Origin: Siphonodentalium dalli
Taxonomy: Eukaryota; Mollusca; Scaphopoda; Gadilida; Siphonodentaliidae
Assembly (NCBI GenBank): GCA_032622095.1
Contig: CP136069.1
Span: 19,481,326 to 19,545,325, forward strand
Direction: 5' to 3'
Length of the DNA stretch: 64,000 bases
Position 1 is the first letter of the stretch. Every line of letters begins with the position of its first letter. Under the pieces are notes generated by a model. The model saw only the letters and a list, made by a program, of their open reading frames with translations, was not told where the DNA came from and did not search any database. A program made the position numbers and the translations under genes. Below, piece after piece: positions 33,400 through 61,219 of the stretch.

Positions 33400-36300
33400 A
33401 TGATGCAAGCGAAAGAATATCAGCTACGCGACTACGGCGGTAAGATTAATAAATCAAATTTTCAATCATCATACAGAGAGTATGGCGGCGCCAAAGAATA
33501 CAGAGGGAAGGAATACCGATCTTTGGGAAAACAACAGGAGAAACGCAAACCCGTGAAACGCCTCGAAAAGCCGTCAGTCAAAAGAATTCCAAAACACAGA
33601 ACGAAGGATAAAGAATTTCGAGGTATTCACAAATGTTATGGTTACTTTGGACTCGATGGACACTGGAATAAAACACGAAACTACCAGTCGCAGGTGAACG
33701 AATATGAGGCAAAGCCGTACGAAACTAAACCAGCACATACACGTTCGGCGAAGGAATACAAATATAAGCCTTACGAAGGTGGGGGTGATTATACCCCGAA
33801 GAGGCGTAATAGCTTACGCCCCGACGGGAGCAGAGGGGCAAGTCCAGATATTGTGAAATCAGTAAAAGGTGCGAAGCCAGAAGCGAGTGATAAGGTTAGC
33901 TTGAAGGACGTTGTAGTTGAAAAGATTCCTGAACCGGTTCACAAAGCCATGCCCCAACAGGCTGCCGTTGCTCAGAAGGCGAATCAAGTGGCACCGGAAG
34001 TTGACGGTGGCCCGGACATTGTAGCAGCGGGAACAACTCAGGCAAAACAACAACCTCATGCCAACATGAAGGCCAAGGAGTATGCAGCCAAAGATTATAG
34101 TAATAAGGCGAACCCGTATAAAGGCAATGGCGAGTTCCAAGGTCGCGAGTACCATGCCAGAGATTACCAACCAGTCAGGAAACCAACAATGGGGGAGACA
34201 AATAAAACGACGGCGGCAGCGGCTATTGTTCCCTTACAGAAAGCTGAATCTACTCCAAAGGACGTGGCTCCGAAAGTTGCGAAACCGAATGACACTAAAG
34301 CTAAAACTAATAAGATAGCACCGGAACCAAAACAAGCTAAGCCAGCTGTCGAGAGAAAGCCAGATCCTATGAAAAATAATATGGCGAAGAATAATGCTGC
34401 CACGAAACCGACTAAAGATTACAAAGGCGGTCACGAGTACAAAGGCGGTCACGCGTACAAGGGTGGTGCATACACGGGATCAAATAAATATGACTTACCT
34501 GGTGGTAAAACATCTCGCGTGCCCAGGGCGGAGCCGGAACCAAAAGTGCCGGAGCCCAAAAAAGGTGCGGATCCAAAAACCAAACCGGAAGTTGCTAAAG
34601 AAAACCCGAAGCAGCAGAATGGACCACCCAAGGCGGTTAAACCCGAACCGAGAACAGGAGGCGAGAAAAAGCCAGATCCCATGAAAAGTAATGCAACAAA
34701 GACTGGTGCTGCTATGAAACCTACTAAAGAGTACAATGGTGGGCGCGATTATAAGGGTGGTGCATACACGGGAAGCAACAAGTACAATTTACCAGGCGGT
34801 AAAACATCTCGCGTACAGCCGCAAATTATGCCGGTTCCACTAACTGGTGGAAATCCTCAACCGCCGGCCAACGAACCAAAGCAGCAAACAGGGAACAAGC
34901 CTCAACCACCGGCCAGCGAACCAAAACAGCAACCAGCGAACAGACAAGGCCAGGACAAAGCAAAGAATCATGGGATGGATTGGAATGATGACCAGAAAAA
35001 GAGGGGCGGGGTTAAGAATGGTGCGATAGCTACAGGGGCGGCTGTTGCTGGTAATCAAAACCAGCCCAATGCCAGGCCTAAGTCTCCGCTGAAAAACACA
35101 CAGAAGGACGTCGCTCGTAATAATCAACCCGCCCCGCAGAATGATCCAAACAAAAAACCTGGCAATGATTTACCCCAGGGAAAACCACAACCCAGAGAAG
35201 CCAAGCCAATTCCAGAATCTAACAAGGAAGCTCCGAAGAATAACCCCCAGAACAACCAACACCAGAATAATACTCAACCGAGAAACAACCAACCTCCTCC
35301 ACAAAATTTACCACAGAATAACCCTCAACCGAGAAACAACCAACCTCCTCCACAAAATTTACCACAAAATAACTCTCAACCTCAGAATAACCAACCTCCT
35401 CCACAAAATTTACCCCAGAATAACCAGCCAGTACCTCAGAACAATGGACAACCCGTAACACAACCACGAAACACAGCACCTAACAACCACCTACCAAATC
35501 CGATGTTAGTTCCGATTGGTGGATCTGTTGCACCTGTTGGACATACAGGTGAAGGTTATCCCAAACAGACGGACGGCGACAATAACAACAAACCGAACAA
35601 TGACAATAAATCTGATAACAATGACAATAAATCTGACAACAAGGTAAAAGATGGGGACATTCAAAATGTAGAAGACGCTGGAAAAAAGAGTCCAACTCCC
35701 AACATGGATGACAAGACGGTAAATGAACCAAAAACCACAACCAATGATAACACACCGAACGATCGAGGTCATTCGCCAAAACAGGATGTCTCATCTGCGC
35801 CAAATACAACAAAGAATGATCCACAAGTTGACCCGCAAAACAGAGCGGACAGCCCCAAAATTAATAACGAACCCAAGGGCGATGAAACATACAGAGTCGA
35901 TCCACAAGGTCCTCCGCCTGGAACTTCTGGTGGTGGCGGTAACTCGGGTGGAAATGCCGCTTCAAATATTCTGCCAGCTGCTGTCGTTGGGGGAGCGATT
36001 GGGGCCGGTATGGCTTCAGGAAGTGGCGGTGACAACGTCCCGAATAACAACAACAACAACAGCGCCGACAATAAGGAAAATAACAACAACACTGGTAGAC
36101 CTGACAATACAAACAACAAACCAACACAACCCGAAAGCAGTTCAAATGTCCCTCCATCTTCTGACAAACAACCATCCCGTGATGTGCCAAAGAATACAGC
36201 CCCTCCACCCAAAATACAGCCTGTACCTGCGCCACCTAATACAAAGAATAATAAACCACAACCAAAAAATGAACCAAAGAACAACAAAGACGTCGGCGGA

Positions 36301-36774
36301 CCTACTCCAAGTCAAGAGCCTCCGTCCAGGAAGCCAAGCAAGACAGAACCACAGAGAAACAAACCGGCGGACAACAGAACCAGCGAGCCTCGTCCGCCAA
36401 AGCAAGTCGACGATTGGTTCGCGCCATCTCCATCTCCAAAACCTTCAAAGCCAAAAAGTCCTGCCGGCCCGAAAGCTGGTCGGTATGAAGATAACTGGTT
36501 GGACAGAGCGACGCCAACGAAGCGACCTACTGTCAACGAACCAGCGGCGCCTCCTGGTGGTGACGACGGGAATTCCGGTCTTCCTCCCGAGGTTCAGGCG
36601 GCAATACGAGGCTATGACGAGATGCACAATCGGAAAGTGCGGACGCCTCCTCCGACAAAGGTACCATTTCCTACATCTTTTACAAACGGCGCCAATGTCG
36701 CGCATGTCGGTCAAGGGTTACCACCACAAGTTGAGGCTGCAATTGGCGCGTATGGCAGGATGCGGCAGTCTTGA
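33400..36774 (+). CDS. Large disordered Lys/Arg-x-Tyr repeat protein, uncharacterised
   Basis: This single exon encodes 1124 residues of low-complexity, Pro/Asn/Gln/Lys-rich sequence, with no signal peptide or catalytic domain that I can see. Residues 1-135 and 225-265 carry KEY/RDY/REY motifs (MQAKEYQLRDY, AKDYSNKANPYKG, GREYHARDYQP). Two copies of a module with YKGGAYTGSNKY and LPGGKTSRV lie near residues 335-370 and 440-470. About 628-690 is a Q/P/N repeat built on NNQPPPQNLPQN. Near 860-875 is a Gly/Ala hydrophobic stretch (AAVVGGAIGAGMASG), and the end repeats LPPEVQAAIRGYDEM and LPPQVEAAIGAYGRM. The acceptor CCTTACAG ends at 33378, and an in-frame TAA at 33382 precedes the ATG, fixing the start. 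Base composition is richer in GC than the flanks. The stop TGA is followed immediately by GTAAGA, a possible donor. Likely a structural or scaffold-type protein; its partner gene is at 60296. Function unknown. Confidence 0.85.
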   Translation: MMQAKEYQLRDYGGKINKSNFQSSYREYGGAKEYRGKEYRSLGKQQEKRKPVKRLEKPSVKRIPKHRTKDKEFRGIHKCYGYFGLDGHWNKTRNYQSQVNEYEAKPYETKPAHTRSAKEYKYKPYEGGGDYTPKRRNSLRPDGSRGASPDIVKSVKGAKPEASDKVSLKDVVVEKIPEPVHKAMPQQAAVAQKANQVAPEVDGGPDIVAAGTTQAKQQPHANMKAKEYAAKDYSNKANPYKGNGEFQGREYHARDYQPVRKPTMGETNKTTAAAAIVPLQKAESTPKDVAPKVAKPNDTKAKTNKIAPEPKQAKPAVERKPDPMKNNMAKNNAATKPTKDYKGGHEYKGGHAYKGGAYTGSNKYDLPGGKTSRVPRAEPEPKVPEPKKGADPKTKPEVAKENPKQQNGPPKAVKPEPRTGGEKKPDPMKSNATKTGAAMKPTKEYNGGRDYKGGAYTGSNKYNLPGGKTSRVQPQIMPVPLTGGNPQPPANEPKQQTGNKPQPPASEPKQQPANRQGQDKAKNHGMDWNDDQKKRGGVKNGAIATGAAVAGNQNQPNARPKSPLKNTQKDVARNNQPAPQNDPNKKPGNDLPQGKPQPREAKPIPESNKEAPKNNPQNNQHQNNTQPRNNQPPPQNLPQNNPQPRNNQPPPQNLPQNNSQPQNNQPPPQNLPQNNQPVPQNNGQPVTQPRNTAPNNHLPNPMLVPIGGSVAPVGHTGEGYPKQTDGDNNNKPNNDNKSDNNDNKSDNKVKDGDIQNVEDAGKKSPTPNMDDKTVNEPKTTTNDNTPNDRGHSPKQDVSSAPNTTKNDPQVDPQNRADSPKINNEPKGDETYRVDPQGPPPGTSGGGGNSGGNAASNILPAAVVGGAIGAGMASGSGGDNVPNNNNNNSADNKENNNNTGRPDNTNNKPTQPESSSNVPPSSDKQPSRDVPKNTAPPPKIQPVPAPPNTKNNKPQPKNEPKNNKDVGGPTPSQEPPSRKPSKTEPQRNKPADNRTSEPRPPKQVDDWFAPSPSPKPSKPKSPAGPKAGRYEDNWLDRATPTKRPTVNEPAAPPGGDDGNSGLPPEVQAAIRGYDEMHNRKVRTPPPTKVPFPTSFTNGANVAHVGQGLPPQVEAAIGAYGRMRQS

Positions 36775-36777
36775 GTA

Positions 36778-37460
36778 AGACAACGTTGAGTAACTTGAGT
36801 TATATATTGCAGCACACGAATCTCTTGCTTATTCACAGTATATCTCACTTCAACGCAATCACTCCAAGGCACCACTGCTTCCTTTTCTATTCTCATCACT
36901 AACTTATAGATTCAGGCGTTCAGGCGATAATTTTTCCACACTCGATGAAATCACACGCAATTCATCGGGAGATTCGACAAGCTTGATACTAACTGCATTA
37001 TTATCTATGAACAACTCTGAACAACTCAACATTTTTTTTCGGAGCTATAGAAAGTGTTTGACCACACAGGCGGAGAATATATATAATTCAAAATTAGGTG
37101 ACATGTTTTTAACCGAAAAACATATTTCTAAAGAACTAAAGTAAACAAAGTTTTTTTAGAATCCTTATGAAAATTTCAACAACAGGGAGCTAATGATGTT
37201 TGCTTGTTCAAATATATAAAAAAAATTCTCTTGAAAATCAGGAAATGTCATTTTGAAAGAAAAAACTGAGAGAAATTAATATATAACGTTATATTTAATT
37301 GAAGCTTCATTTCTGGAATATGTTTTGAAAAAAATGCCACCACCGTCAGTATTGAATTAAGCCACCTAAGTATATTGCTTAGGCACCTGCTGTGGTTGAA
37401 AGTAACGTAGGATCGTTTCGATCAATCCTTAATCAACCTCTTTGTCATGTTAACTAACTA
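36778..37460 (+). other. Presumed 3' flank or UTR of the Tyr-repeat gene
   Basis: No AATAAA was found in the first 600 bases after the stop. That fits the idea that a 3' UTR intron starts at GTAAGA (36775), or that a weaker signal is used. No coding sequence or repeat family is seen here. Confidence 0.4.
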
Positions 37461-37683
37461 TTTCTATTATTGAACTCGAAGTGTCCTTCTTGCGAATGTC
37501 TCGTTTCTTTCACTAAAAATACTTTAGTTTGAAAGTCTTTTCTTTCAACCACATTCAATTAATACATGTATCATACATGTATTAATTGAATGTGGTTGAA
37601 AGAAAAGACTTTTAAACTAAAGTATTGTTAGTGAAAGAAACGAGACATTCGCAAGAAGGACACTTCGAGTTCAATAATAGAAA
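37461..37683. mobile_element. 223-bp near-perfect foldback
   Basis: The left arm starts TTTCTATTATTGAACTCGAA and the right arm ends with its exact complement. The arms are about 105 bases long with few mismatches, closing on TACATGTATCATACATGTA. Single locus in the window. Confidence 0.85.
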
Positions 37684-37754
37684 ATGATGTATCCTTAACA
37701 CATCAGCTTTCCTCACATTGTTTACTAAACCAAACTATAAAAGCTATTTTTTAA

Positions 37755-37982
37755 CCCTTTCTATACTAAATGAATTCTCCCACCCAGTTATAACAGTATA
37801 TATTGGAATTATCTATTATTCATGTGTAGGGATGTTACGGATATATATGAGCAGACGGTTTATACAAGTGCAGAAGTATTCATATTCATTGGTGGGAAAT
37901 GTTTAGATAATAAGTTCAACAAACGACAGGAACATCTCCTGAGGGAACTACTCGTCAATGAGTATATTTAGTATGGAAAGTG
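37755..37982. mobile_element. 228-bp TTAA MITE (CCCTTTCTATACTAAA family)
   Basis: TTAA at 37751-37754 and 37983-37986. The ends are CCCTTTCTATACTAAATG and ATTTAGTATGGAAAGTG. It pairs with 48678-48923. A related fragment with AAATGTTCAGATGATAA and CTCGCCAACGAGTATTTAGT follows at 38060-38180. Confidence 0.8.
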
Positions 37983-38189
37983 TTAAGAAAACAAAAAAAA
38001 CACGGAATATTTTAATATAATCGGACAATCGATATGACAGATTTATACGCAGACGACAGTTAGACAAACATTTACAAGTGCAGTCCAGTTCATCAGTGGG
38101 AAATGTTCAGATGATAATTCCTTAGCTTATTATCTAAACATTTCCTCAGGGAAACTCTCGCCAACGAGTATTTAGTAAAGGACCGGTTA

Positions 38190-39340
38190 ATTCATCAACA
38201 TATCAACATGACCTAACAGTAACAGCACAAGATAATTATAGGATGGCCACTTAACCGGGGTATATAGTTGTTTATGGCTGCGAACATGCAAGAGTGATAC
38301 TTGATACGAATTATGGACGTTTCGGTATTTAGGTGCATGCATGGTTTTTATAACTTTCACTCATATTCACATGTGTGTGCATTCCGAAAATATTTGAAAC
38401 TACATTGTATGTGAGGTATAACGTACATCATAGAATACATTTTTCATATACTGTAGCATGCTAGCTGGATCACCTGTCAGATTCGATAGGAATTTCCTTC
38501 ACCGTGGTACAATGGAAAGACGGAAGACATGACTATATCTAAAATTGTTCGATTGCATACTAATCATGTCAAAGATAATAAACAAATCATGCGCCGAAAC
38601 GTCTTCGATGAAGTCGAAACAACCAAGTGCCGAAACGTCCTGACAACCAGGCGTCGAATCGTGCAGGTTCCGAAAGGTCATGCACCCCTCGATACCTTTA
38701 TCAAAGACATGCAACATGTAACCATTGAAAACATTGTTGTATTAGGTAATGAATCAATTACTTCATACTATGTATGCATTATGAATGCTAAGTCTGGGTT
38801 TTGCGACGGAAATGTAAGACACATGACAATATATACGACTTCGAACTTCATACAGCGTTTCCTACATGTATGTACATTGTATCTCTTCCCAAGTAGATAT
38901 TCCTGATTTACCTATCCCCACCACATCATTCACCTCTACATGGCTCCATCGATCCCACCCCAAATGTCTACCCTTTAGAGCCAAGAGCAAGACATTCTGT
39001 GCTGTAAATATGATTAAAACTCAATTCCAGGACATGGTAACAAGCGCAATTTCGCAAAAATTATGCAAAAAATATACTACCCTAAGTCAAAATGTTCATA
39101 TGGAAAACGAGTAGCGCTATCTAGAACATTGTGAACTTTCGGGTCTTGTGTGGTAATGCAGGACCTGCCCTCGCTATTCGAACTCTATCTCCATATGTCA
39201 AAGATTGAGCTCTAGAAATAGCTAACTTAAATGGGAATAACAAAAACATAGCCACTGAAAATTCGTGAATTTTGGGTATTGTTAATAGACAACTAATTTG
39301 AATGAGGATTTTCATGCGCATTTCAGAGAAAATATGGCCA
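38190..39340. other. Unassigned; short GCCGAAACGTC repeats
   Basis: CGCCGAAACGTC and similar words recur at 38591, 38630 and (diverged) 38650-38675 in a 125-codon open frame at 38529-38906. The frame has no recognisable domain and looks like decayed repeat, so I do not call a gene. Confidence 0.35.
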
Positions 39341-39718
39341 TATTATCACTTGATTATCACGAAATTTAGCCGTATTACCGCATGCTTTTAGAATTATCCA
39401 TCTTCATCCGTAATTATGTCCGAGACCATCGCATTGACGATTTTTTTCCCAAGCCACAAATAAGTACATATCACTTAAATAACAAATTTCAAAAATCGAT
39501 ATCTGATCGCTCTGAGCTTTGATGGGTGGGTTCCTCGCCATATTTCGTTGAACAAAATGTTGATAAGTAGCACTTTTTGGGCAATTTTATACTATATTTG
39601 ACTGTTATTAGCATTATTTTGGGGCAATTAATCGATTCTGATAACAGAAGCGGCATTTCAAAAAATGTTGTTGTTGGAATCTGATTATATGGGGACCATT
39701 GAATCGGATTGAGTACCT
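39340..39718. mobile_element. Truncated AGGTACTCAATCC element
   Basis: The right end GGATTGAGTACCT precedes TTAA at 39719-39722. The left end is missing. Confidence 0.65.
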
Positions 39719-40015
39719 TTAAATTGTATAATGATAAAATGTCCAGGAACTAAAACAGGTATTTTTATATCGTTATACAATTATAACATGTAGCTGGCGA
39801 ATTGGTGAGCAAATTATCAATTGTCCATACAAATCTAGTTTGGGAATTTATTGCTGCAACTTGCGTTGAGTAAGTATTTGCTGGTTTGAATGGGGTGCAG
39901 TAAGAGATTTAGAGGTGGACTCGCATTCCATTCGAGTCCGATAACAACGCCAGGTTCTGTGTTTCACCATATTGAAAGAACTATGATCAACGTATAGTAG
40001 ATGTACTTATTTTAA

Positions 40016-40417
40016 ATGTACTCAATGCGATTCGATGGTCCCCATATCATCAGATTCCAACAACAACATTTTTTAAATGCCGCTTCAGCTATCAGAATCT
40101 ATTAGTTGCCCAAAAATAAAGTTAACTACAGTCAACTATAAAATTGCATGAAACGTGTTATTTATTAACATGTTGTTCGACGAAATTTGGCTTGTTATCA
40201 ACACAACGCTTCTTTATTTTAGAGTTATCCATCTTCATCAGCAATTTGGTCCGAGACCGTCGGCTCGTCGACGTTTTACTGGGCCACTATTAAGTCTCGA
40301 TTTTGAAAAATAATAATGTTCAAAAATGGATATCTAATAACTCTGACATTTGATAGGTGGGTTCCTCGACTCGAATCAAATATTTGTTTGAGGGAGGTTT
40401 AGTCGGATTATGTATCT
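40016..40417. mobile_element. Old AGGTACTCAATCC family copy
   Basis: TTAA at 40012-40015 and 40418-40421. The ends ATGTACTCAATGCGATT and GTCGGATTATGTATCT are diverged. Inside, GGTTCCTCGACTCGAATCAA is conserved. Confidence 0.7.
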
Positions 40418-40525
40418 TTAACGTGTTGACACAAGTCCCTGACAAAAATACCCACAGCACTAAAAGCTAAAAGTACTTATATTTAGGTCTTTTAAGTGCT
40501 AACTAATTTTGTCAAGGAACGTCAT

Positions 40526-40660
40526 TGATACGATAAGATAAGATAGTTTATTGCAATACACCAGTGTAGGCAATGGCAAATAACATAATGTACAAGTAAA
40601 TTAAACATAATTAATAATATATGTGCATAAAATAGTAAACAAGCCTATAACTATATCCTA
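40526..40660 (-). mobile_element. LINE 3'-end fragment with TTATC tail
   Basis: On the minus strand it ends GCAATAAACTATCTTATCTT ATCG, a polyadenylation-like signal followed by a short TTATC repeat, the usual 3' form of CR1/L2-type elements. No coding remains. Confidence 0.5.
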
Positions 40661-40679
40661 CATACGATTCTTAATTAAA

Positions 40680-41060
40680 GTCAAAATAAGTCGAAAATGA
40701 AGTGTAATGTTAGGAAAAACAGCCCGAGCCAACCCTGAGCCGCATCATGTAGAGAGTGTGATGTGAGAAGCATGTATACCAAAAATTATTGAAATCGGTT
40801 CATATTTGTTAAAGTTATTAAGTCGGACAGAATTTTCTAAGTCAAAATAAGTCGAAAAGTAAGGCGTAACTTAAAAAAAGAAAGTCGGACTGCACCGCAA
40901 TTAGCATCACGCGGAGAGGCGGTCCTAAAGAGATTGCATACAAACCATTATTGAAATCGGTTCATAGTTGTTCGAGTTATGAGGTCGGACGGACGGACGG
41001 ACGGACGGACACACGGAGGGAGAAAGTGTGACGGACAGACGCAGTCAAAAATGTGACGGC
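40680..41060. repeat. Diverged tandem repeat with GGAC microsatellite
   Basis: Two units share GTCAAAATAAGTCGAAAA and ATTGAAATCGGTTCATA. They end in (GGAC)n at 40985-41010. Confidence 0.65.
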
Positions 41061-41429
41061 CAGCTAGACGCAGTCAAACCAGTATATTTACACACTAAGT
41101 GTTGTCATCACTAAATCCAGCATTCTGATTGGTCGGCGCCCACGTGGCTAGTTGCAGTTATTTCTCGGTGAATGCGCAACGCCTCATAACACCAAGCTAA
41201 TAACACCATCGATACGTCATTAGGTTTGGAAAGACGAAGGCGTAATGTTTTGGGCGCATTTGGACTCGCGCAGGATTGACTTAATACATCGTCGGGTTTC
41301 AATATGAAGAGAAATTGTTCCTATTAACTTTTGGCAAGGGTGCTATTGGGTATTTTGGGCTGATCTTGTCACGATACACTTTTCGATTTAAATATATTTA
41401 CAAAAGTGGCTTCTTCGCTAAATGTATAT

Positions 41430-41625
41430 AAATATAAGGATTAACTGTCATGTGGACTATTTTTATGGAGATGTAACGGTGAGGTAAGTGGTCATAACTT
41501 GTATGTAAAACCCTTCGGGTTTTACACAAGTTATGTCCACTTACCTCACCGTTACATCTCCATAAAAACAGTCCACATGACAGTTAATCCTTATATACCC
41601 CCCATTTTCTTCGAAAGTGGGGGTA
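41430..41625. mobile_element. Long foldback followed by a second hairpin
   Basis: Arms AAGGATTAACTGTCATGTGG (from about 41436) and the complement ending near 41593 span about 75 bases each, closing on AAAACCCTTCGGGTTTT. Immediately after, TATACCCCCCATTTTC and GAAAGTGGGGGTATA form another hairpin at 41594-41629. The spacing suggests a subterminal-hairpin element, but its ends are not resolved. Confidence 0.7.
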
Positions 41626-43410: not shown

Positions 43411-43453
43411 ACGCCCGTGGTGCTACGTGCTGTTATATACTGGTGAAAATTAA

Positions 43454-44945: not shown

Positions 44946-44949
44946 TATA

Positions 44950-49585: not shown

Positions 49586-49591
49586 TTTTAA

Positions 49592-50523: not shown

Positions 50524-50529
50524 TTAATT

Positions 50530-51300: not shown

Positions 51301-51304
51301 ATAA

Positions 51305-51440
<136 letters not shown>

Positions 51441-51444
51441 TGTG

Positions 51445-53820
51445 TATTCCTCAATATCAACAAAGAACCCAGAAAAGGCTGCGTTCCTGCTTCCTATATG
51501 TTTGACGTCGCAGGCAGAGTCAAAATTGTGATCCTCTGTATGAAGTTGGTGACTTATGGGTGCAATATAGGTGCTGAACTATGGTTGTGGTATTCTATAA
51601 CTTTGAGTTATCTATATATAACTATTTAAACAAATCTAATTAAACACAAAATGTATCGTTTTTCTCTTATATTCACGACTATCACGACTATCCCTAGGTA
51701 TCAAATTTCGTCGAAATCCGTTAATTTTTAAATTTAATTTGAGTTAATTCTGCCTTTTTAATCAAGAGAAATGATGGTACCCGTCCCGTGATGGTACCCG
51801 TCCCTAAAATAGGTACGTTTGTGGGTACCCGTTTCAAAGTGAAGATCAAATCGGGCGGAAAAACTTACCCGATGAAAATCTCCCCCGTTCCTTGGAACCC
51901 CTAAGTACGAAGACAGACATAAGAATCACATAACACGCTCATGTCTGGATACAGACACACTCACGTCTGGCCCCAGACATAAGAATCACACTACACGCAT
52001 ACGCTCTTTATCAACGACACTGCGGATACGAACGCTCTTTAACTATCAACGCGATTAACTACACAGTGCCAAGGACGGTCATTTTGGTGACTGGGTGTGG
52101 AGAAGGGGTGATCGGAGCTTCTCCAAAACGGCGGTAAACACTCCCCGTGGTTGTTAACCTTAGATTGGAAGTTTGAGCTCAATCGGTCCAGCCGTTTTCC
52201 CCGGCCATAGATAACAGACAAACAAACAGAGACGCGCTCATGTAGACCAAGTCTTTTCGGCTCACAACAGCGTGGATTATCGGTTGGGATGATGCTATTT
52301 TTGACCGAGTCCCGCCCGTTGCTTTTCTATAAACGTTCTGATTTAAGTTCGTTTAACTAGAGATGCTCTCCTTGATGACTCGGCTATATTTATTTATCGA
52401 TTCCCAACATTTTAAGATACCATTTTCGGCCTGATCGTAGTAAACCTTTTCCAAATTATTAAATGTTATGTTTCCTCCATGTTATCAAGCCACGCCGACA
52501 ATCAAACATTAGGCTAAATCACGAGGTTGTACACAATCTGTAACTTGAAATATAGGCCTACTGTGTGGTTCTGTATATAATACAATAAAAATATACAATA
52601 TAAAAAGAACCCATTTATAAAGAGCGTTATACTATGTGTTATATATGTATATTTCCTTACAATACTTTATGTCTTATATGTAGGTTTTTCCCCACTGATT
52701 ATATCCCACCTGCATGGAACTGATATTATTGTCTTCGGGTTTCCCCATATAATATTGTATACAAACGGTTCTCTATTCTTTAAGTGCATGCCATATATGC
52801 ATATTTCAAAAAGATGGAAACAACGGTACCTCCCAAGCTCATAATAACAATAAAACCTTGCCAGGATAGTGTGTGGATTTCAACAATGCTATGTGTTGTT
52901 TACTCTCCGAAACTTAGCCACATTACCAAACACATTCATTCAAATGGCGGTTTTTTGGCGGTTTACATGCGATGTGTTAAGCATATTGTTAATATTATTA
53001 TCTGGGACCCAAGCGGCCATATACACGCATACTAATACATGGATGTGTATTGTTTGACTACCAGTGGATACTAGTATATACATATTATTGGGCGCCCCAA
53101 CTCCCGTGCGACATACATATATTTACATATCAAAATCAATATGTAATCATAGAATATACCCCAAATTTCTAGCGGAGCGTGCGCATTATGGCTTTGATCT
53201 GTCCGTCCGTCTGTCCATCCATCATTCGGTCTTGGTTTATGTGTGGTGGCTTAAGTTAAGTATCAACTGGAAAAACTATAATCTAGTGTTTGGGTTTTCT
53301 AACACAGAGTGCATGCCGGGGCCGCATGTTCGGTGACCGCCGGCCACCACCCCCCACCCCCCCCCCCCCCCCATTTGTATTGGGATTTCCTTCTATGTAC
53401 GGCATTGATAAGTCCCAACTGATTTTACTGGGATTACTGGCCCGGGTGCAGGTTGGGTTCGAGCTTGGAGTCCTACCCGGGGGTTTTACATGTCACATCG
53501 CGATATTACTTCTGAGTCAATATATGACGCCCATATAAAAAGCGTTAATTTATTAGTTTTTACACGGGAATATGGAAAGATCGGTTAATCCAAGGAAGTC
53601 TAGACGTATATTCTATACCTGTGTTACTCTTATCTTGACATTTTGTAAACTGCCGCAAGGTAGACTGCTCTGGACGTCACTAGTGATGTTTCCACTATCG
53701 AAGTTCAAGACAGGGGTGCCTCTATATGTGGGACCGGGGTGCGTGCATCCACCTGCTCATATATTATGGGTATCACAAAAAAAAAAAACAAACAAACAAA
53801 CAAAAAAAACAATATATATA
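51445..53820. other. Mixed unassigned sequence without supported genes
   Basis: Contains GATGGTACCCGTCCC repeats near 51775 and AGACATAAGAATCACA repeats near 51915 and 51975. Pieces with ACGCTCTTTA are at 51990-52040. A poly-C tract is at 53345-53373. A 120-base repeat, GACGCGCTCATGTAGACCAA to CCCGTTGCTTTTCTATAA, is at 52210-52330 with a second copy at 53824-53930. No exon is supported. Confidence 0.5.
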
Positions 53821-53950
53821 TTAGACGCGCTCATGTAGACCAAGTCTTTTCGGTTCACAACAGCTTGGATTATCGGTTGGGGTGATGCTGCATGTTTTTG
53901 ACCGAGTCCCGCCCGTTGCTTTTCTATAACGGACTTTCATTCAAAAGACG

Positions 53951-54105
53951 TAGGATAGGACAGGATAATTTATTTACAATATACATGAATTATACAATGG
54001 CAGTAATACATAATAAGGTAAAGCCGTATATTGTCTGGGGTAGCCTAGCCCTATATATCAGGCTGTCTTCCTGCTACCCCCTTAAACAATTATGAGTATA
54101 AATAA
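53951..54105 (-). mobile_element. LINE 3'-end fragment
   Basis: On the minus strand it ends GTAAATAAATTATCCTGTCC, then TATCC-like repeats, a CR1/L2-type tail similar to 40526. No reverse-transcriptase frame is preserved. Confidence 0.45.
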
Positions 54106-54270
54106 TAGAATATATGCTTGTATTTCATATCCACGCACACGTACAGACTATAATTATATATTAAACTTAATAGAATCTAGTACTATACATGTACATGTGG
54201 AGCCCGGGCATTCACGTAAACCCAGGAAAGTGATTAATCATCTGACATGTCCGCGATTAATCTGTCTTAA

Positions 54271-54662
54271 CCCTTTAACCAACAGAACGGCCCTGTGCCA
54301 ATGCATTCTCTTATATATGCGAGTCGACCATAGGTCGCCTCGCATATATAAGAGAATGCATTGGCTTAACACATTAAAAATTATAAAATTGTTAAAGAAT
54401 GTAAGAAAAAATGGTAAAAAGTGTTAAAAAAAGATTTTGTTTAGGCCAATGCATTCTCTTATATATGCGAGGCGACCTATGGTCGACTCGCATATATAAG
54501 AGAATGCATTGGAACAGGGCATAACTGTAACTATCACAATGTGGTCAAGGAGCCGGTTCCAATGATATCCATATTTGTATGGTTCTATTGAGACAGACCG
54601 AAGATATTTTAGGCTGTTGAAGCTTTATTTGGCCGGTTTTGGTCGGTTTGTTGGGTAAAGGG
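54271..54662. mobile_element. 392-bp TTAA MITE (CCCTTTACCCAACA family), inverted copy
   Basis: TTAA at 54267-54270 and 54663-54666. The same two hairpin modules at 54293-54366 and 54442-54514, with AAAATTGTTAAAGAATGTAA between. Opposite in orientation to 50131-50523. Confidence 0.88.
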
Positions 54663-54669
54663 TTAAAAA

Positions 54670-55330
54670 GATTTATATCATTTACCGTGATAGAAAAAGA
54701 GGAGATTGAGGAGATGGCTCCATATAAGCGCCTGGCGCTTGATGTCAAATCCTCTTCTCTCTCAGACTTATCATACTTACATATATATATATTAACATCA
54801 TTTTGTAAATTGTTGTATAAATCTGGGATACTAAATAAATAATGTTTACACCAGAAAAAGAGTTATAGTGATAATACGATCATTTAATAATGTTTTGTTT
54901 ACATGAATTTTCTGATAGCGCAACAAATCGAAATTCTCTGGAAAACTAGGCTTTGTTTACTTATAAATTTCGTTGCGTTGACATTCAACCGACATCTGGT
55001 ATATGCATGTTCGATATCACCATGCTTGGAAAAAAGCTGCCCGCTATGTTCATATATACGCAAAGCTTCCAATTCACTCATTCCGAAGACATACACGCAA
55101 GATAACTCCCACCCACGATTATGGGCGTAAAGTCCATTATAGAAGAGTAACGGGATGGGACTCGGTCCAAAACAGCATCGGAAAAAAATTTCAGGCACGT
55201 ATGGCATTTTTTCCCTTTCGATCATTTTTTGTACCCACCCACCCCCACCGCCAAATTTTTTTCCGTTTTCGGCAGTTTTTTTCCGACACCCACCCACCCC
55301 CCTTTTAACACTAAAACAGAGATTTGCGGG
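54670..55330. other. No gene seen; C-rich dispersed repeat at its end
   Basis: CACCCACCCACC-type sequence at 55230-55305 resembles 441-500 and 14225-14280. Frames in all phases lack motifs. Confidence 0.4.
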
Positions 55331-55340
55331 GGGGAATTCA

Positions 55341-55700
55341 CTGTATATGAATTTCTGTGCATACTATTTATCATGGATGTTAACATGGGACATGTAAATA
55401 GGAATGAGTCATTTTGAGGTCATTCGTCCAAAAAAACATGGCTGCCAGCGGCCATCTTGGATTTCAAAATTTGCAACAAATACAACACGATAACTGCCTG
55501 CAGTCAGTTTACCAGTTAGAATTACATTATTTATCTCATTCAAAGTGGTTTTGAAGCCCAACTCATTGGCAAAAAAATACTAAAAAAACAAGCAGGAAGT
55601 TTTTTTTTTTAGTTGCGGAAAAAATTGCATGTTGGTGGCTTTGACCACCCACCCACCCGCAATTTTTGTTTTCACCCCCCCCCCCTGATTCTCTTGCAGA
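55341..55700. repeat. Dispersed repeat, copy of 1-545
   Basis: Shares CTGTATATGAATTTCTGTGC, CGGCCATCTTGGATTTCAAA, AGTTGCGGAAAAAATTG and CACCCACCCACC with the first 545 bases. Confidence 0.8.
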
Positions 55701-56235
55701 CATTCATGATTTCAGATGGCAGACTTAGGGCATACCATACCCTAGTTGGTTTCATAAGCTCAATAATGCAGTGTATTTCCTGTTAACTCTCTAGTGACCT
55801 GCATGCCAAGTTCCTTGATTCAAGATTATTAATATTTGACCTCTTATGTCACATATATGTATTTTAAATGAGTGAATAAAATATTTAGATATAGACCAGC
55901 ATGGGAAATTGTTGTTTTTATTTTGTTTAAACCGTTTTTTAAAACATAATTAGAATATATCGCTCATATTGTGAGGGTGAACATTTGTTGTTATAGTACT
56001 ATAGCATACATTGGTTTTAACGGATGATGATTTTTTTTCCTTCAAATTGATAGTTTAAATTGAGTTTTTTTTGTCAAGTCTAAAATTCAAGTCAACTTTG
56101 CAATTCATCACATAAATTGTTTTGTTTCTAGTGATAATAAAAAGGTACGTTTATTGCATGTTTTGCTTATACTGTTGCTTAAATATAATATTATATGTTA
56201 AATCCAATGCCAAAGATTCAATGTTTGCCTTCTTA

Positions 56236-56640
56236 AAGTGATGTGAGACACTCCGCCGTAGGGTGATCAAATATAAATTGAGAATAATCTTGTTCAAAGT
56301 AGTTATTTTTTAAACGAATATTAATCCAAATTGACAACACATGCCGTCATGCTTGTGTATTAATTAAATGCAATGAGTCTCGATGCCGAAAAAATGTGTT
56401 AGTTTATCTCCGATAGTTGCGTCTCAAATCGAGATGTAAATATTTACAATTGAGCGTAGTTCAGACAATGTCTTCTGTGGAGTGGGATGGTCGACTTTTT
56501 TTAATTTTCGGCGACGTTCGTAGAATATTATATTCCCAAGGTTGGCATAGAGCCTGCGTACTAACTTATCAGTTTCCAGCACCCGAAAAAGTCCATAATA
56601 TGTCTTTAAGCACAAGCGTCAATTCACGGATTGTTGTAAA
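56236..56640. repeat. Dispersed repeat, AAAGTGATGTGA family
   Basis: Related to 13755-14145 and 58374-58751. Confidence 0.75.
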
Positions 56641-56704
56641 ATAATTTATTAGTTTAAACATATTTATTTGTCTAAATTCAATAATACATAGGAAATAACA
56701 CATA

Positions 56705-57060
56705 TATAGAGGATCTCACATGAGTTTCTATTTTATACGGAATTTATCAACCGAGTTCACTAAATTCGATTAGAGCCGAGGTTTACCGAGGCTCAAACAG
56801 AATTTAGAGGACGAGGTTGATAAATTACGTATAAAATAGGACGAGTGTGAGATACCTTTTATCTCATGATCAAATAAACCCGAAGCAACGCGAAATATTC
56901 ATCGAAAACAACAATCATAAACTACAGCGATCGCAAGTTATTTGAAGAACGCCGTGACGTCATCGCACGCGCTGATATTAAACGTGTCTATTACCGATAA
57001 TTATGAAACTGCTTTTATGGCCAAATTATGTGATAAACTTGTATACAGACAATGGGATTG
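56705..57060. repeat. Dispersed repeat, inverted copy of 42960-43410
   Basis: The left half is the foldback with CACATGAGTTTCTATTTTAT and AAAATAGGACGAGTGTGAGA. The right half contains GCGATCGCAAGTTATTTGAA and GATAATTATGAAACTGCTTT. Confidence 0.8.
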
Positions 57061-57423
57061 GAGGACAAGTGCTGACTCACTTAAAAGTACCTCATCTCCA
57101 GATTGTTATTACACTAAGAAATAAATCAAGAATAATGGCATTGTCGCTTACATAAAGGTCATGTATACGTCGATAAACGTTATCGGTTTCGACCACACAT
57201 GTGCACGAACTAGTTTCCACACAGAATCGCCACACGTGTTTGGAAAAATGTCAGCCTTATTTATTTTAACATGATTGAAATGAAGTTTTTCTGCAACTAG
57301 AGGCATGATTGTCAGCCTATGTCAGGTGTTTGTTCACAAGAGGTATAATTGCTTAGAAATTATCTAAATTTATGGAAAGATATTGGAGATGCTATAGGCG
57401 TTTTATACCAATACTGGAATTAA

Positions 57424-57881
57424 AGGCCCACCTAATTTTCGAACCCCCAGATAATTTTATATAAAGTATATACCATATTATATACCATTTAAAAAAAGGA
57501 AGTGCGAAAACATTGCACTATCAACTTAGTCGGTGTAATAAAATGAGAAACCTTTTGTTATTGTTGAGATATTGACTTGTGTTATGTGCTCAAGTTTCAT
57601 TATTTTCAAAGGAAGGGAATAACTCTATATCTTAAGATATAGAGTTATTCCCCTTCCATTGAAAATACATTTTTAGTTTGAATTCTGTTGCATTCTGGGA
57701 ACCTTAACGGGGGAAAGATGTTTTCTTTTTTCTATGGACATCCTCTGAGACACAGACGTTTCAAATGGTGATGAATTATAGTATTTTAATCATATTTTAT
57801 GGCATAGATTGTTATTAAAACCGTATATCAATACAAGGCACTATAAAAAAATAATTGCTGACTCGAAAATTAAGTGGGCCT
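57424..57881. mobile_element. 458-bp TTAA MITE (AGGCCCAC family), copy 2
   Basis: TTAA at 57420-57423 and 57882-57885. The ends are AGGCCCACCTAATTTTCGA and TCGAAAATTAAGTGGGCCT. Its perfect central hairpin AACTCTATATCTTAAGATAT allows recognition of the shared core. Confidence 0.87.
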
Positions 57882-58092
57882 TTAAGTAATGGGAAGTAAC
57901 TCTTTATTTAGATTAAGTTTATGAATTATAACCGGAAAGTTTAAAGACAAATTTACTATAACACCAAATCTACACCGGTCGTATGTATCAATGCCACCAA
58001 ATTAAATGTACGCAAACATAATTACCCACACGCTCGTTCAGTTGTATAATTGAAAGCAGTTGAATTGAATTTTAAACCTAGCCACAAAAAGA

Positions 58093-58320
58093 TCATTCAC
58101 TGTACAACTGGCAGGGCGAAGTGTCTTGAATGGTTTGCCGGGCTGTTTTGTTGTACACATTCGAACCGTCTTTCTTGGTTTGACACATTAACAAATCATC
58201 AATAATACACATATTCTGGTCATAACCGTATTTAGTTTCGATTATGTTCTTCGGGACATTAGAACCGGAAGGTGACTTTAATTTAACTACGAATGGACGG
58301 TGACACGATGGATATATATA
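58093..58320 (-). CDS. Possible terminal exon on the minus strand, 75 residues
   Basis: After an AG (TCGGCTTCCTAG) the minus strand is open from 58320 to a TGA at 58093-58095. It reads through HRPFVVKLKSPSGSNVPKN, TKYGYDQNMCIIDDLLMC and QTKKDGSNVYNKTARQT to SPCQLYSE. The composition (balanced polar and hydrophobic residues, no long repeats) looks like real protein, and the plus-strand frames here are broken. The region belongs to no repeat family I see. I do not recognise the product. An upstream exon is required; a minus-strand ATG exon with a GTAAGTAT donor exists at 59451-59514, but its phase does not match directly. Confidence 0.35.
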   Translation of the reverse strand, partial: YIYPSCHRPFVVKLKSPSGSNVPKNIIETKYGYDQNMCIIDDLLMCQTKKDGSNVYNKTARQTIQDTSPCQLYSE

Positions 58321-58373
58321 CTAGGAAGCCGATGTAAGTATTTCGTAACAAACCACCAATATCTCAACATATC

Positions 58374-58751
58374 AAAGTGATGTGAAACACCCCGGTAGGG
58401 TGATCAAATAGAAATTGAGAATAATCTAGCTCAAAGTAGTTATTTTGTTTACGAATAATAATCCATATTGACAACACCAACCGCCATTCTTATGTAATAC
58501 TTAAATGTAATGACTCTCGATGGCGAAATAATTTGTGTTAGTTTATCTCCGATAGTTGCGTCCCGAATCGAGATGTAAATATTCACAATTGAGAGCGTAT
58601 ACAGTTCAGACGATGTTTTCTATGGAGTGGTAGGGTCGATTTCTTTTTAAATTTCGGCGATGTTTGTAGATTGTTACATTCCCCAGGTTGGCATGGAGCC
58701 TGCGTGCTAACTTAGCAATGTCACGCATCAGAACATTTACATAATATGTCT
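58374..58751. repeat. Dispersed repeat, AAAGTGATGTGA family
   Basis: Related to 13755 and 56236. The TTAA at its right end (58752) is the target of the MITE that follows. Confidence 0.75.
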
Positions 58752-58755
58752 TTAA

Positions 58756-59210
58756 AGGTACTCAATCAGATCAGACGGCCCCCATGCCATCAAGATACAA
58801 CAACAGCATTTCTTCAAAATACGCTTTAGTTATCAGAATCGATTTATTGCAACAAAATAAAGCTAACCACTGTCAACTATGGTATAAATTTCCCAAAACT
58901 TGTTATTTATCAACATTTTGTTCAACAAAATATGGCAGTATTATCACTAAAATATCACAAAATTTGACCGTATTACCACACGATTTTAGAGTTATCCATG
59001 TTCATCCGCAATTTTGTCCGAGACCCTCCGTTTGACCACGTGTTTCTTGGCCACATATTATTACACATCTCGAGAAATAACAAACTTCAAAAATCGATAT
59101 CTGATCACTCTGAGCTTTGATGGCTGGGTTCCTCGACTCGAATCAAATATTTTTTACCACCAAAGCCAAAGAAATAGTAATTTAGGAGCGTCTGATCGGA
59201 CTGAGTACCT
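58756..59210. mobile_element. 455-bp TTAA MITE (AGGTACTCAATCC family)
   Basis: TTAA at 58752-58755 and 59211-59214. The ends are AGGTACTCAATCAGATC and GATCGGACTGAGTACCT. Confidence 0.85.
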
Positions 59211-59214
59211 TTAA

Positions 59215-59740
59215 GATCCTTCGTGTTCTCGACACAATCAGTTTAATTGAATAATTATGTTGTGGGTACACATTTTACTATTTTCGAAAACAAATTGGCT
59301 GGTTTTGGAATTTGGAAATTTGCTTCCGCGGGTTTATGAAACTGATTTTTCAATAAATACGAGAGACAATGAGGCGTCATGTGGCGTGATTGGTTTGGGT
59401 GGGTCAGTAAACAATTCCGCTTCTCATGATGTATACTATATACTTACCGTTGAGAGTGTCTTTGAGGCGAGAGTCTGTATAAAAATAGAGTCTTTGCCAG
59501 AAATGGAGCGGACATAAATTGAAGAGTTAAAACAATCTTTCAATCTACTTACGCTTATGAAAAGGGTATTATTTTTGTGTATATTATAACCAGTTTGTTG
59601 GTGTTAAATTTTTTTTTTTTTTAAATTAGGTCCGGCCAAGTTGGTCACCTTTTTTTTTATAGGATTAAGTATTACTGGGGTGTGGTCATTTTTGTTTGTT
59701 CTGCTGACCTGTGAGGATAACTATATGTACAGTGCACTTC
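59215..59740. other. No supported gene; possible minus-strand first exon
   Basis: On the minus strand ATG at 59514 opens MSAPFLAKTLFLYRLSPQRH and reaches a CG|GTAAGTATA donor at about 59449. This is only 21-22 codons and has no independent support. Confidence 0.2.
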
Positions 59741-59744
59741 TGAT

Positions 59745-60178
59745 ATATGTGACCCGCCATATCAAATCCAGTCGTCAGTCGGGATTTTTTTTACCCTGTG
59801 CCAATGCATTCTCTTATATATGCGAGTCGACCATAGGTCGCCTCGCATATATAAGAGAATGCATTGGCCTAACAATTTTTTATCATTTTTTAAAATAAAT
59901 GTTTCTTACATTTTTTAGGACATAAAATAAAAAAAACATCCATTACCCTGCAGGGAGCCCCACACATATATAGAAGCATATATAAGAGTGTCGTCTGCTC
60001 ATGTTTGTCTGGGGCTCTGTATGGGTGAAATATTAAAATTGTAAAAAATTGTTAGGCCAATGCATTCTCTTATATATGCGAGGCGACCTATGGTCGACTC
60101 GCATATATAAGAGAATGCATTGGCACAGGGTAAAAAAATCCCGACTTACGACTGGATTTGATATGGCGGGTCACATAT
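59745..60178. mobile_element. 434-bp inverted-repeat element with two hairpin modules and 27-bp flanking repeat
   Basis: The arms ATATGTGACCCGCCATATCA and its complement ending at 60178 extend past 100 bases into the hairpin modules (59798-59870 and 60052-60127). A 27-bp direct repeat starting ATATGTACA, with one mismatch, flanks it (59723-59749 and 60175-60201). It ends 21 bases before the splice acceptor of the next gene. Confidence 0.8.
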
Positions 60179-60270
60179 GTACATTGCACTTCTGATATAT
60201 GTTCCTCTTTGTTATTTTGCAGCTGACATACGATGCTTCAGTTTACACACAAATAAGATATATCACGATA

Positions 60271-60303
60271 ATGCAGTTTGAAAAATCACCCAACAATGTA
60301 TGA
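60271..60303 (+). promoter_or_regulatory. Upstream open frame overlapping the start of the 60296 gene
   Basis: ATG at 60271 reads MQFEKSPNNV and stops at TGA 60301-60303, overlapping the main ATG (60296) in another frame. Another small frame (MLQFTHK) is at 60233-60256. Both would be in the leader if the acceptor at 60222 is used, and could reduce translation of the main frame. Confidence 0.5.
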
Positions 60304-61219
60304 ACCGAAATTCAAGTCATCTACCGCAGCAAGTGCATTATTTAAATTTCAACCTCAGTCCAAACTGAAGAGTAATAAGCTGTTTGACAACGAAAAATAC
60401 AAGGCGAAAAATTACAAGCCGAAAAATTACGAGTCGAAAAATTACGAGCCGAAATTTAAACCAACCATCAAAAATGATCTCACCGTCAAGGATCCTGGTG
60501 AGTATGAGAACAAGGAGTACTATCACATGCCGAAAGGAGGTCGATCGAGGAAGGGTCGGGATGAGGAGAAAGTAGCCGACAAGAAAGCACCAGACACGAG
60601 AAAACAGAACGATGCAGCCAATAAACGACAGCAAGCGCATCAAAAGAAAAACGAAGAGAAGAAAAAACAAGAGCAAAAGGACAAAGAGAAGCCGAAGGAG
60701 ATACCACAGACAAGAAAGGACAATCGAAAACAAGAAGAGCCAGAAGAAAAGAAGAAAGACAAAGCTGTTAAATTTACAGAGGAGAAAGAGAAAAGTTATG
60801 TTGCAAAAGATTACAAACCCACTCACGAACGAGAGTTAGAAGATTACGACGCGCGCAAATACGAAGGGAGGAATTATCAGGGAACAATATATGACGACTA
60901 CAGAAGACAGAGAAGCGAAGAAATGATAGAGGATGAAAGAGAAGAGACTCGCAAGACGAATGAAGAAAGAGAAAATATCCGTAAACAGGAAGAAAACGCG
61001 AGGCAACGAGAGAATGAGCGACAAGAACAGGAACGGATACGCAGACAGGAGGAAGAGATGGAACGACAGGAACGAGACAGGAGAACGAAAGAGGAGGAAG
61101 AAAGACGGCGATTTGAAATGGAACGACAACAGCGACAGAATCTTTTAAGCAGAGAGCAAGATCAAAGACAGGGGGTTGATAGTCGAATAGCACGATGGTC
61201 CACAGATGGACGCAGAAAG
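60296..61219 (+). CDS. Lys-x-Tyr / charged-helix protein, first coding exon, uncharacterised
   Basis: This exon encodes the first 308 residues, beginning MYEPKFKSSTAASALFKFQP. Residues about 34-56 repeat K-x-K-N-Y (YKAKNYKPKNYESKNYEPKF). A second Tyr cluster near 168-208 contains VAKDYKPTHERELEDYDARK, YEGRNYQG and YDDYRRQ. From about 78 to 165 it is rich in Lys/Glu/Gln, and from 210 to 300 it is a nearly uninterrupted Arg/Glu/Gln helix (RQEEEMERQERDRRTKEEEE), a probable coiled coil or single alpha-helix. No signal peptide. The acceptor TGTTATTTTGCAG ends at 60222. The exon ends in phase 0 at AAAG, before GTATGT (61220), so the protein continues beyond the window or in an exon I could not identify. 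An ATG at 60271 opens a 10-codon frame overlapping the start. Motif style and gene layout match 33400-36774. Function unknown, probably intracellular scaffold or cytoskeletal. Confidence 0.8.

What the first reader, a model, noticed from the sequence alone, without database searches (positions are those of the whole stretch)
33400..61219. Two genes of an apparently undescribed Lys/Arg-x-Tyr repeat family
Seen: both proteins repeat short K/R-x-Y words at similar spacing (AKEYQLRDY, GREYHARDYQP; YKAKNYKPKNY, AKDYKPTHERELEDYDARKY, EGRNYQG). Both start a few bases after a splice acceptor and have no signal peptide. One has a long Pro/Asn/Gln-rich body, the other a long charged helix. They lie about 27 kb apart on the same strand. 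Inference: they descend from one gene or share a binding motif. Tyr/Lys-rich repeats occur in adhesive and structural proteins, and periodic Tyr motifs also occur in microtubule-lumen proteins, but absence of a signal peptide argues against secretion. Together they could be two parts of one assembly, one scaffold and one rod.
Basis: partly seen in the sequence, partly recalled or inferred. Interest (0 to 1): 0.75.

Follow-up and report, generated by a model that had tools for sequence, protein, structure and literature searches.

The report
Tandem Tyr-Lys repeat gene family
Two odd animal genes spotted in this stretch belong to what looks like a row of five related, apparently undescribed genes for long, floppy, highly charged proteins that repeat short tyrosine-lysine words, in some of them between stiff helical rods; their job is unknown, most likely scaffolding inside cells.

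Summary
Both genes carry 5-residue-spaced Tyr words (Y-x-[AGPS]-[KR]-x-Y; AK[DEN]Y) beyond composition. The guess of common descent is supported mainly by what lies beyond the window: the same strand holds three more genes. g3 and g4 carry 7 and 15 copies of an extended module ending in [LM]-x-KG-x-[RKI]. g1 joins them (BLASTP with g4 4e-6, 0 of 400 block shuffles; held-out profile 0 of 500; but an earlier profile missed it). g2 is weaker (E 0.002, 0 of 400; but 276 of 500 in the held-out test). g5 lacks the Tyr module but shares a C-terminal DWW motif with g4 (1e-6). Genome searches showed no convincing member outside the cluster. What was scanned has no Pfam match above cut-off and no PDB match. 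g4 repeat units show pN/pS 0.2. Best reading: an undescribed tandem family of intracellular scaffold proteins, Tyr docking modules with charged helices as spacers. The family is well supported for g1, g3, g4; partner and function are inference. Microtubule-lumen (Mn/SAXO) identity was tested and not met.

The parts
33377..33378 (+). g1: splice acceptor AG; exon starts 33379, in-frame TAA 33382-33384 before the ATG
   Evidence: read; no transcript data
33400..36774 (+). g1: single-exon coding sequence, 1124 aa; Tyr modules in residues 1-473, then Pro/Asn/Gln-rich body
   Evidence: only itself found in the genome at E<=1
33400..33516 (+). g1 Tyr block (residues 1-39; AKEYQLRDY, AKEYRGKEY)
33676..33792 (+). 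g1 Tyr block (residues 93-131; YEAKPY, AKEYKYKPY)
34075..34167 (+). g1 Tyr block (residues 226-256; AKEYAAKDY, GREYHARDY)
34411..34521 (+). g1 full module copy A (residues 338-374; KDYKGG..YKGGAYTGSNKYDLPGGKTSRV), aligns with g4 ...YRGGNKYDMNKGERYGRVPR
34699..34818 (+). g1 full module copy B (residues 434-473)
   Evidence: 10.1 bits, 0 of 500 shuffles; one search finds it from copy A, E 2e-8
60221..60222 (+). g2: splice acceptor AG after a T-rich tract; exon starts 60223, in-frame stop 60269-60271 before the ATG
   Evidence: read; no transcript data
60296..61219 (+). g2: coding part of the exon, 308 aa, phase-0 GT donor at 61220; later exons not found (if unspliced, stop at 61250-61252)
   Evidence: a partial copy at C9:19551328-19551597 ends in the same ...TDGRRK and gtatgtta
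60392..60454 (+). g2 Tyr block 1 (residues 33-53; EKYKAKNYKPKNYESKNYEPK)
   Evidence: aligns to g4 KEYKPSEYKPKGYKP
60527..60550 (+). g2 single KG core (residues 78-85, MPKGGRSR)
   Evidence: not recovered as a full module when held out
60791..60904 (+). g2 Tyr block 2 (residues 166-203; YVAKDY, EDYDARKYEGRNYQG)
60872..61216 (+). g2 charged rod (residues 193-307), predicted continuous helix; i,i+4 charge pairs 29 opposite, 8 like in residues 201-308

Best explanation
g1 and g2 are members of an undescribed tandem gene family, probably of five genes, on one strand of one chromosome (g1, g2, then g3, g4, g5 beyond the window; about 134 kb from first start to last end). The proteins are probably intracellular and mostly disordered or helical. 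Tyr words and a fuller Tyr module ending in [LM]-x-[KG]G-x-x recur in g1-g4; in g3 and g4 they are spaced by charged E/D-K/R stretches of about 73-80 residues (11-12 nm if helical); g3 and g4 have SP/TP/R-rich tails and g3-g5 a C-terminal DWW motif. Most likely mechanism (inferred): the Tyr modules are multivalent docking motifs for one common partner, probably a cytoskeletal polymer or each other, and the charged helices are stiff spacers, so the long members g3 and g4 are multi-site scaffolds and g1 and g2 are shorter partners with the same docking words. Shown: open frames, shared modules, selection on coding in g4, the g3 splice by conservation. Inferred: cell location, partner, spacer role.
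For: Composition-adjusted BLASTP: g3-g4 1e-15, g1-g4 4e-6 (block-shuffle z 10.3, 0 of 400), g2-g4 0.002 (z 4.9, 0 of 400), g4-g5 1.3e-6. Leave-one-gene-out module profiles recover g1, g3 and g4 (0 of 500 shuffles each). Whole-genome tblastn with a 165-aa g4 N-terminal piece finds g3 at 1.2e-4 (and 0.01, 0.18) and nothing elsewhere at E<=10; other queries stay in the cluster apart from hits at E 4-9, and for g3 whole repeat-DNA and low-complexity hits. g4 repeat units: pN/pS 0.19 (module), 0.21 (rod), 7 of 11 units. Spliced g3 tail resembles the unspliced g4 tail across the junction. Repeat period: 117-118 aa in 9 of 10 steps of g4, 123 and 120 aa in g3. i,i+4 charge pairs opposite to like: g3 45:7, g4 36:15, g2 29:8. 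AlphaFold2 gives g2 a helix 193-307. No signal-peptide-like N-terminus in g1, g2, g4, g5 (crude scan).
Against: g2 fails the held-out module profile (276 of 500 shuffles reach it). A first profile from g3+g4 alone gave no domain in g1 and 6.3 bits in g2 against a best shuffle of 6.9, so profile results depend on the alignment. g1-g3 and g2-g3 give no BLASTP match at E<=0.1. g3 has no AK[DEN]Y and K[DENPS]Y only at chance (2 against 1.8), so it shares the 5-residue spacing and the KG core, not the K-x-Y word itself. g5 has no Tyr module and Tyr spacing at chance. The W motifs of g3-g5 were not recovered in g1 or g2. Genome-wide, the g1 module query does not reach g4. At i,i+3 the g3 and g4 rods have more like than opposite pairs (19:33, 20:32). 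No expression, localisation or partner data; single-sequence AlphaFold2 readily makes helices of charged sequence (recalled); mean pLDDT 67, pTM 0.30.
Confidence: 0.42

Rival explanations
1. The proteins are nuclear: RS/SP-rich, highly charged SR-like or chromatin-linked proteins in which the Tyr words act as condensate 'stickers' with Arg/Lys.
For: [ST]P motifs: 42 in g3, 50 in g4; RS/SR dipeptides 19 and 24; repeated SPRRDKSPRRD and TPTPPPR tails. A charged single helix in CAF-1 binds DNA and serves as a spacer (PMC10335832, title and abstract start seen).
Against: No domain found: Pfam 0 families for the long exon of g3 and for g4 at E<=1. g1, g2 and g5 lack such tails ([ST]P 15, 0, 9). A fixed-period rod array is not typical of SR proteins (recalled).
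Confidence: 0.22
2. Microtubule-linked (axonemal or sperm) proteins: Tyr modules bind tubulin, charged helices run along the lattice.
For: Mn, PYG and related microtubule-lumen modules are short, often aromatic words repeated along extended proteins (PMC10973386, passages); a charged single helix in INCENP binds microtubules (PMC4571873, title and abstract start).
Against: The published Mn syntax [TS][TS]X4[YF] occurs 0, 0, 0, 1, 0 times in g1-g5, at or below chance, and Y[RK]S[DE][FY] 0 times in each. No Pfam or PDB match in what was scanned.
Confidence: 0.15
3. Secreted adhesive, cuticle or shell-matrix proteins cross-linked through Tyr (DOPA) and Lys.
For: Lys/Tyr-rich repeats are typical of such proteins (recalled).
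Against: No signal-peptide-like N-terminus in g1, g2, g4 (from MASKM) or g5 by a crude scan; in-frame stops just upstream of the ATG in g1 and g2. g3's first coding exon is unknown. The [ST]YPP word is absent in all five.
Confidence: 0.1
4. No family: two unrelated low-complexity genes that converged on Lys/Tyr words.
For: g1-g2 direct E 0.029; g2 fails the held-out profile; the g3+g4-only profile missed g1.
Against: g1-g4 z 10.3 and E 4e-6; g1 recovered when held out; all five genes lie on one strand in 134 kb and no convincing copy was found elsewhere.
Confidence: 0.11

Closest known systems
Proteins with stable single alpha-helix (ER/K) domains, e.g. INCENP, drebrin, CAF-1 KER region (PMC4571873, PMC12203971, PMC10335832; titles and abstract starts only)
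   Same: Long E/D-K/R stretches with i,i+4 opposite charges and few hydrophobics; possibly rigid spacers
   Different: In g3 and g4 the rods recur at a near-constant period between Tyr modules; no known domain found with them
MAP6/SAXO and other Mn-repeat microtubule proteins (PMC3280300, PMC10973386; passages)
   Same: Short repeated words along an extended, domain-poor protein
   Different: Mn syntax and the SAXO core word absent or at chance; Tyr spacing mostly 5-6; no SAXO/MAP6 family in the Pfam scans
Trichohyalin (recalled, not tested)
   Same: Charged Arg/Glu/Gln helix repeats in a large intracellular structural protein
   Different: No S100/EF-hand family in the Pfam scans of g1-g4; Tyr modules have no counterpart that I know of
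Mussel foot protein 1 and other Tyr/Lys adhesives (recalled)
   Same: Dense Lys-Tyr repeats
   Different: Secreted; here no signal-peptide-like start and no [ST]YPP words

Membership tests
Tandem Tyr-module family proposed here | Tyr words at 5-residue spacing above chance | tested here: met
   pentad with Lys/Arg: g1 4 vs 0.12, g2 6 vs 0.03; plain Y....Y above chance in g1-g4 (0, 0, 0 of 2000; 3 of 600), not in g5
Tandem Tyr-module family proposed here | Full module recovered from a profile that excludes the gene | tested here: inconclusive
   g1, g3, g4 met (0 of 500); g2 not met (276 of 500); a g3+g4-only profile missed g1
Tandem Tyr-module family proposed here | Same strand, neighbouring positions | tested here: met
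Tandem Tyr-module family proposed here | C-terminal DWWxxNxxSxxRP motif | tested here: inconclusive
   present in g3, g4, g5; g1 not recovered; g2 C-terminus unknown
MAP6/SAXO (Mn repeats) | Mn syntax [TS][TS]X4[YF] repeated | tested here: not met
   0, 0, 0, 1, 0 matches in g1-g5; shuffle means 0.43, 0.12, 0.54, 0.58, 0.37
MAP6/SAXO (Mn repeats) | N-terminal cysteine cluster (CVC-type) | tested here: not met
   read by eye: Cys counts g1 1, g2 0, g3 2, g4 5, g5 2; no CxC near a start; g3 start exon unknown
MAP6/SAXO (Mn repeats) | Microtubule binding | not testable with these tools
   needs biochemistry
Secreted Tyr/Lys adhesives | N-terminal signal peptide | tested here: not met
   crude hydropathy on g1, g2, g4, g5; no dedicated predictor; g3 start exon unknown
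Single alpha-helix proteins | Charged stretch with i,i+4 opposite charges, few hydrophobics | tested here: met
   i,i+4 45:7 (g3), 36:15 (g4), 29:8 (g2); i,i+3 not so in g3, g4; helix in a single-sequence model of g2
Any Pfam family | Match at the curated cut-off | tested here: not met
   g1, g2 0 families at E<=10; long exon of g3 and g4 0 at E<=1; five pieces only sub-cut-off lines; g5 and g3's second exon were not scanned

The most novel reading that the evidence does not exclude
The cluster encodes the parts of an undescribed lineage-specific intracellular fibre or molecular ruler: long members present Tyr modules at a near-fixed repeat of about 117-123 residues (rods about 11-12 nm) and dock on a polymer or on each other, while g1, g2 and g5 cap, link or tune the assembly; the modules are kept uniform by gene conversion while the genes diverge.
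Probability: 0.15. Interest if true: 0.8.

Novelty: new variant of a known kind. Interest (0 to 1): 0.55.

Why it matters
A small cluster of diverged genes that share one repeated module, with no Pfam or PDB relative found, is a compact handle on a possibly lineage-specific intracellular structure. The modular design, uniform Tyr modules at near-constant intervals between charged, probably helical rods, predicts a periodic partner and can be tested directly; it would be a natural ruler or scaffold if true. It also shows how low-complexity proteins can be tied into a family through their genomic neighbourhood where the sequence of two members alone is too weak.

Tried and rejected
Direct homology of g1 and g2 from the window alone: E 0.029, not enough. 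A module profile from g3+g4 only did not find g1; the leave-one-out profile with a longer module, which for g1 also had the g2 module in training, did. W-motif profiles (DWW and H..DW) did not recover g1 or g2 above shuffles: look-alikes in g1 (EDNWLDRATPTKRP; HGMDWNDDQKK, by eye like g5 HSFDDWNEKDKK) stay unproven. Weak Pfam lines for single pieces (ODAD1_CC 0.005, UPF0767 0.21, DUF3464 8.6, Imm51 0.089) are below cut-off. The LTRPK tail word of g3/g4 recalled THEG repeats; the pieces scanned showed no such match. The first 31-33 residues of the g3 open frame match 17 other places in the genome and lie mostly upstream of the acceptor, so they were dropped as repeat DNA. The other 30 hits of g3 whole (e.g. 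C1:48642806-48647770) fall in its SP/TP-rich or charged parts and were taken as low complexity. Viral contigs: 7 pattern matches, no relative of g1. Fold search of the g2 model in PDB: 0 matches. The species was not identified; nine sequences and 2.23 Gb did not lead to a name (listing; PMC10810820 outline and abstract; PMC12005716 passages).
Full report
The finding. The coordinates are right: g1 33400-36774, 1124 residues in one exon; g2 60296-61219, 308 residues ending at a GT donor. The exons begin 21 and 73 bases before the ATGs, with an in-frame stop in between in both (read).

Is it more than chance? Yes. [KR]xY words: g1 18 against a shuffle mean of 5.3; g2 8 against 4.2 (p 0.031, weak). 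The real signal is the spacing: Y-x-[AGPS]-[KR]-x-Y is seen 4 times in g1 residues 1-470 (mean 0.12) and 6 times in g2 (mean 0.03); AK[DEN]Y 5 and 2 times (means 0.09, 0.04). Tyr-context matrices cross-predict between the genes beyond 3000 shuffles, including shuffles that keep the Tyr positions. The direct alignment of the two is weak (E 0.029; local-alignment shuffles p 0.002-0.028).

The neighbourhood. The window is G000:C9:19481326-19545325 of a 2.23-Gb genome in 9 sequences. I took 40 kb upstream and 120 kb downstream. In window coordinates continued past 64000, the downstream flank holds: a partial copy of the g2 rod, 70003-70272 with one stop inside, ending at the same ...TDGRRK and gtatgtta; g3, exon 99782-102976 plus exon 103754-104012, 1150 residues, first coding exon not known; g4, 129207-137201, open frame of 2664 residues, start perhaps MASKM at residue 80; g5, 165114-167405, 763 residues. 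All are on the + strand. A tblastn of eight pieces of g1-g4 over the 224 kb gave, outside the four genes, only three places at E<=0.05: the g2 partial copy, the second exon of g3, and the tail that revealed g5.

One family. Composition-adjusted BLASTP: g3-g4 1e-15, g1-g4 4e-6, g2-g4 0.002, g1-g2 0.029; g1-g3 and g2-g3 nothing at 0.1. g4-g5 1.3e-6 over a 53-column tail; g5 against g1 nothing at E<=1, against g2 0.99, against g3's long exon 0.77. Against shuffles within 20-residue blocks, which keep local composition, g1-g4 has z 10.3 and g2-g4 z 4.9, both 0 of 400; of the 16 piece comparisons run, 6 had at most 1 of 400 shuffles reaching the score; the four with the g4 repeat unit had 19, 114, 233 and 314 of 400. 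Leave-one-gene-out profiles of the module recover g1 (10.1 bits), g3 (20.5) and g4 (16.7), 0 of 500 shuffles each, but not g2 (-2.1 bits, 276 of 500). An earlier, shorter profile from g3+g4 alone missed g1 and gave g2 6.3 bits against a best shuffle of 6.9. So g3 and g4 are secure, g1 nearly so, g2 likely, and g5 is tied by its C-terminal motif DDDWWRDNMKSYRRP (g4 DNDWWAKNMRSKRRP, g3 DNDWWAKNIKSPLRP). Word by word the sharing is uneven: AK[DEN]Y is strong in g1, g2, g4 but absent in g3, and K[DENPS]Y is at chance in g3 and g5, while plain 5-residue Tyr spacing is above chance in g1-g4.

The module. By pattern g3 has 7 and g4 15 copies (17 rows for g4, two dropped: one overlapping, one inside a rod), g1 two full copies, g2 one core. 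Typical ends: NKYDMNKGERYGRVPR (g4), NKYDLPGGKTSRVPRA (g1), GTIGDLPKGKRSRVNA (g3), EYYHMPKGGRSRKGR (g2). In g4, 11 units begin with GSPTRH; nine of ten steps are 117-118 residues and one is 75; in g3 the three like units lie 123 and 120 apart.

Real genes under selection. Seven equal-length g4 units (of 11): pN/pS 0.19 in the Tyr module, 0.21 in the rod; pS 0.058 in the module against 0.317 in the rod, which suggests that the modules are homogenised by conversion or recent spread (inference). Joining g3's two exons gives KRHRCSHSPTQKFWRDQSPPPRKR, which by eye lines up with the unspliced g4 stretch KQHKCEFSPPDHYWEELSPSPRDR, so that splice is supported by conservation. Other splice sites rest on consensus only.

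Restricted to this locus, as far as tblastn in the own genome shows: g1 only itself at E<=1; g2 itself and the partial copy; a g4 N-terminal piece finds g3 at 1.2e-4 and nothing outside the cluster at 10; the g4 unit 14 places, all in g4; the tail piece g3 at 0.002 plus two hits at 4.2 and 9.9; the DWW piece g4 at 1.4 and one hit at 6.2; the g1 module its own two copies plus one hit at 8.7; a g3 module two places, both in g3. g3 whole gave 48 places: itself, 17 short matches to its repeat-DNA start, and 30 in its charged or SP/TP-rich parts (only 42 of 8351 first-look candidates were scored). Distant or intron-split members could be missed; the g1 module query did not reach g4 at this scale.

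How it may work. Few hydrophobic residues (AILMFVW 11-19% of g1-g5) and 26-56% charged residues mean little folded core. The rods carry more opposite than like charges at i,i+4 (g3 45:7, g4 36:15, g2 29:8; at i,i+3 the g3 and g4 rods do not: 19:33, 20:32; [quoted passage not shown] abstract starts). AlphaFold2 on g2 alone gives helices 102-131, 180-190 and 193-307, mean pLDDT 67, pTM 0.30; Foldseek found no PDB match. About 73-80 rod residues at 0.15 nm make 11-12 nm (arithmetic). With no signal-peptide-like start in the four genes that could be checked (crude scan), I read these as intracellular scaffolds whose Tyr modules dock on a common partner. The partner is not known; the SP/TP/R-rich tails of g3 and g4 keep a nuclear role open.

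Known kinds. Pfam: 0 families for g1 and g2, the long exon of g3 and g4; pieces gave only sub-cut-off lines; g5 and g3's second exon were not scanned. PDB by sequence: 0 for g1, g2, the module profile and one g3 module; g3-g5 whole were not searched. MAP6/SAXO: the published Mn syntax and core word (passages) are absent or at chance, so it is not a member, though it may work in a similar multivalent way. Paper searches: 0 papers; others (28 papers, 15 listed; 23, 10 listed) showed no title or abstract start about such a family, and none of those papers was opened on this question. The library is open-licence PMC only, and sequence words are seldom in text.

Limits. No transcripts, no other species, species unnamed. 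Homology among low-complexity proteins is easily overstated; I rely on block shuffles, held-out profiles and neighbourhood together, and give the failed tests above.

Noticed in passing
window 21551-24792 (-): LINE-type element: endonuclease and reverse-transcriptase domains over two overlapping frames (Pfam RVT_1, Exo_endo_phos).
   Followed up: partly
window 8500-9483 (-): Single-exon rhodopsin-type GPCR, 327 aa frame (7tm_1 1e-11, Srw 1e-10).
   Followed up: partly
window 59786-60138, 37461-37683, 41440-41588: Near-perfect inverted repeats with 104-, 111- and 63-nt arms (97-98%), the first a nested palindrome just upstream of g2; look like MITE-type elements.
   Followed up: partly
L007:6003-6272: Partial copy of the g2 rod with a stop inside and the same donor, possibly a relic duplicate.
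   Followed up: partly
L019:532-8523 (g4 repeat units): Synonymous difference is about five times lower in the Tyr module than in the neighbouring rod (0.058 against 0.317), hinting at module-level gene conversion.
   Followed up: partly
window coordinates 139688-140584 (beyond the window, downstream of g4): Open frame made of a repeat (QIYNRPFPIPNYNTCNDMPALKRLL...), probably a minisatellite.
   Followed up: no
window 36577-36771 (g1 residues 1060-1124): Two copies of a short word, GLPP[EQ]V[EQ]AAI.[GA]Y..M, at the C-terminus of g1.
   Followed up: no
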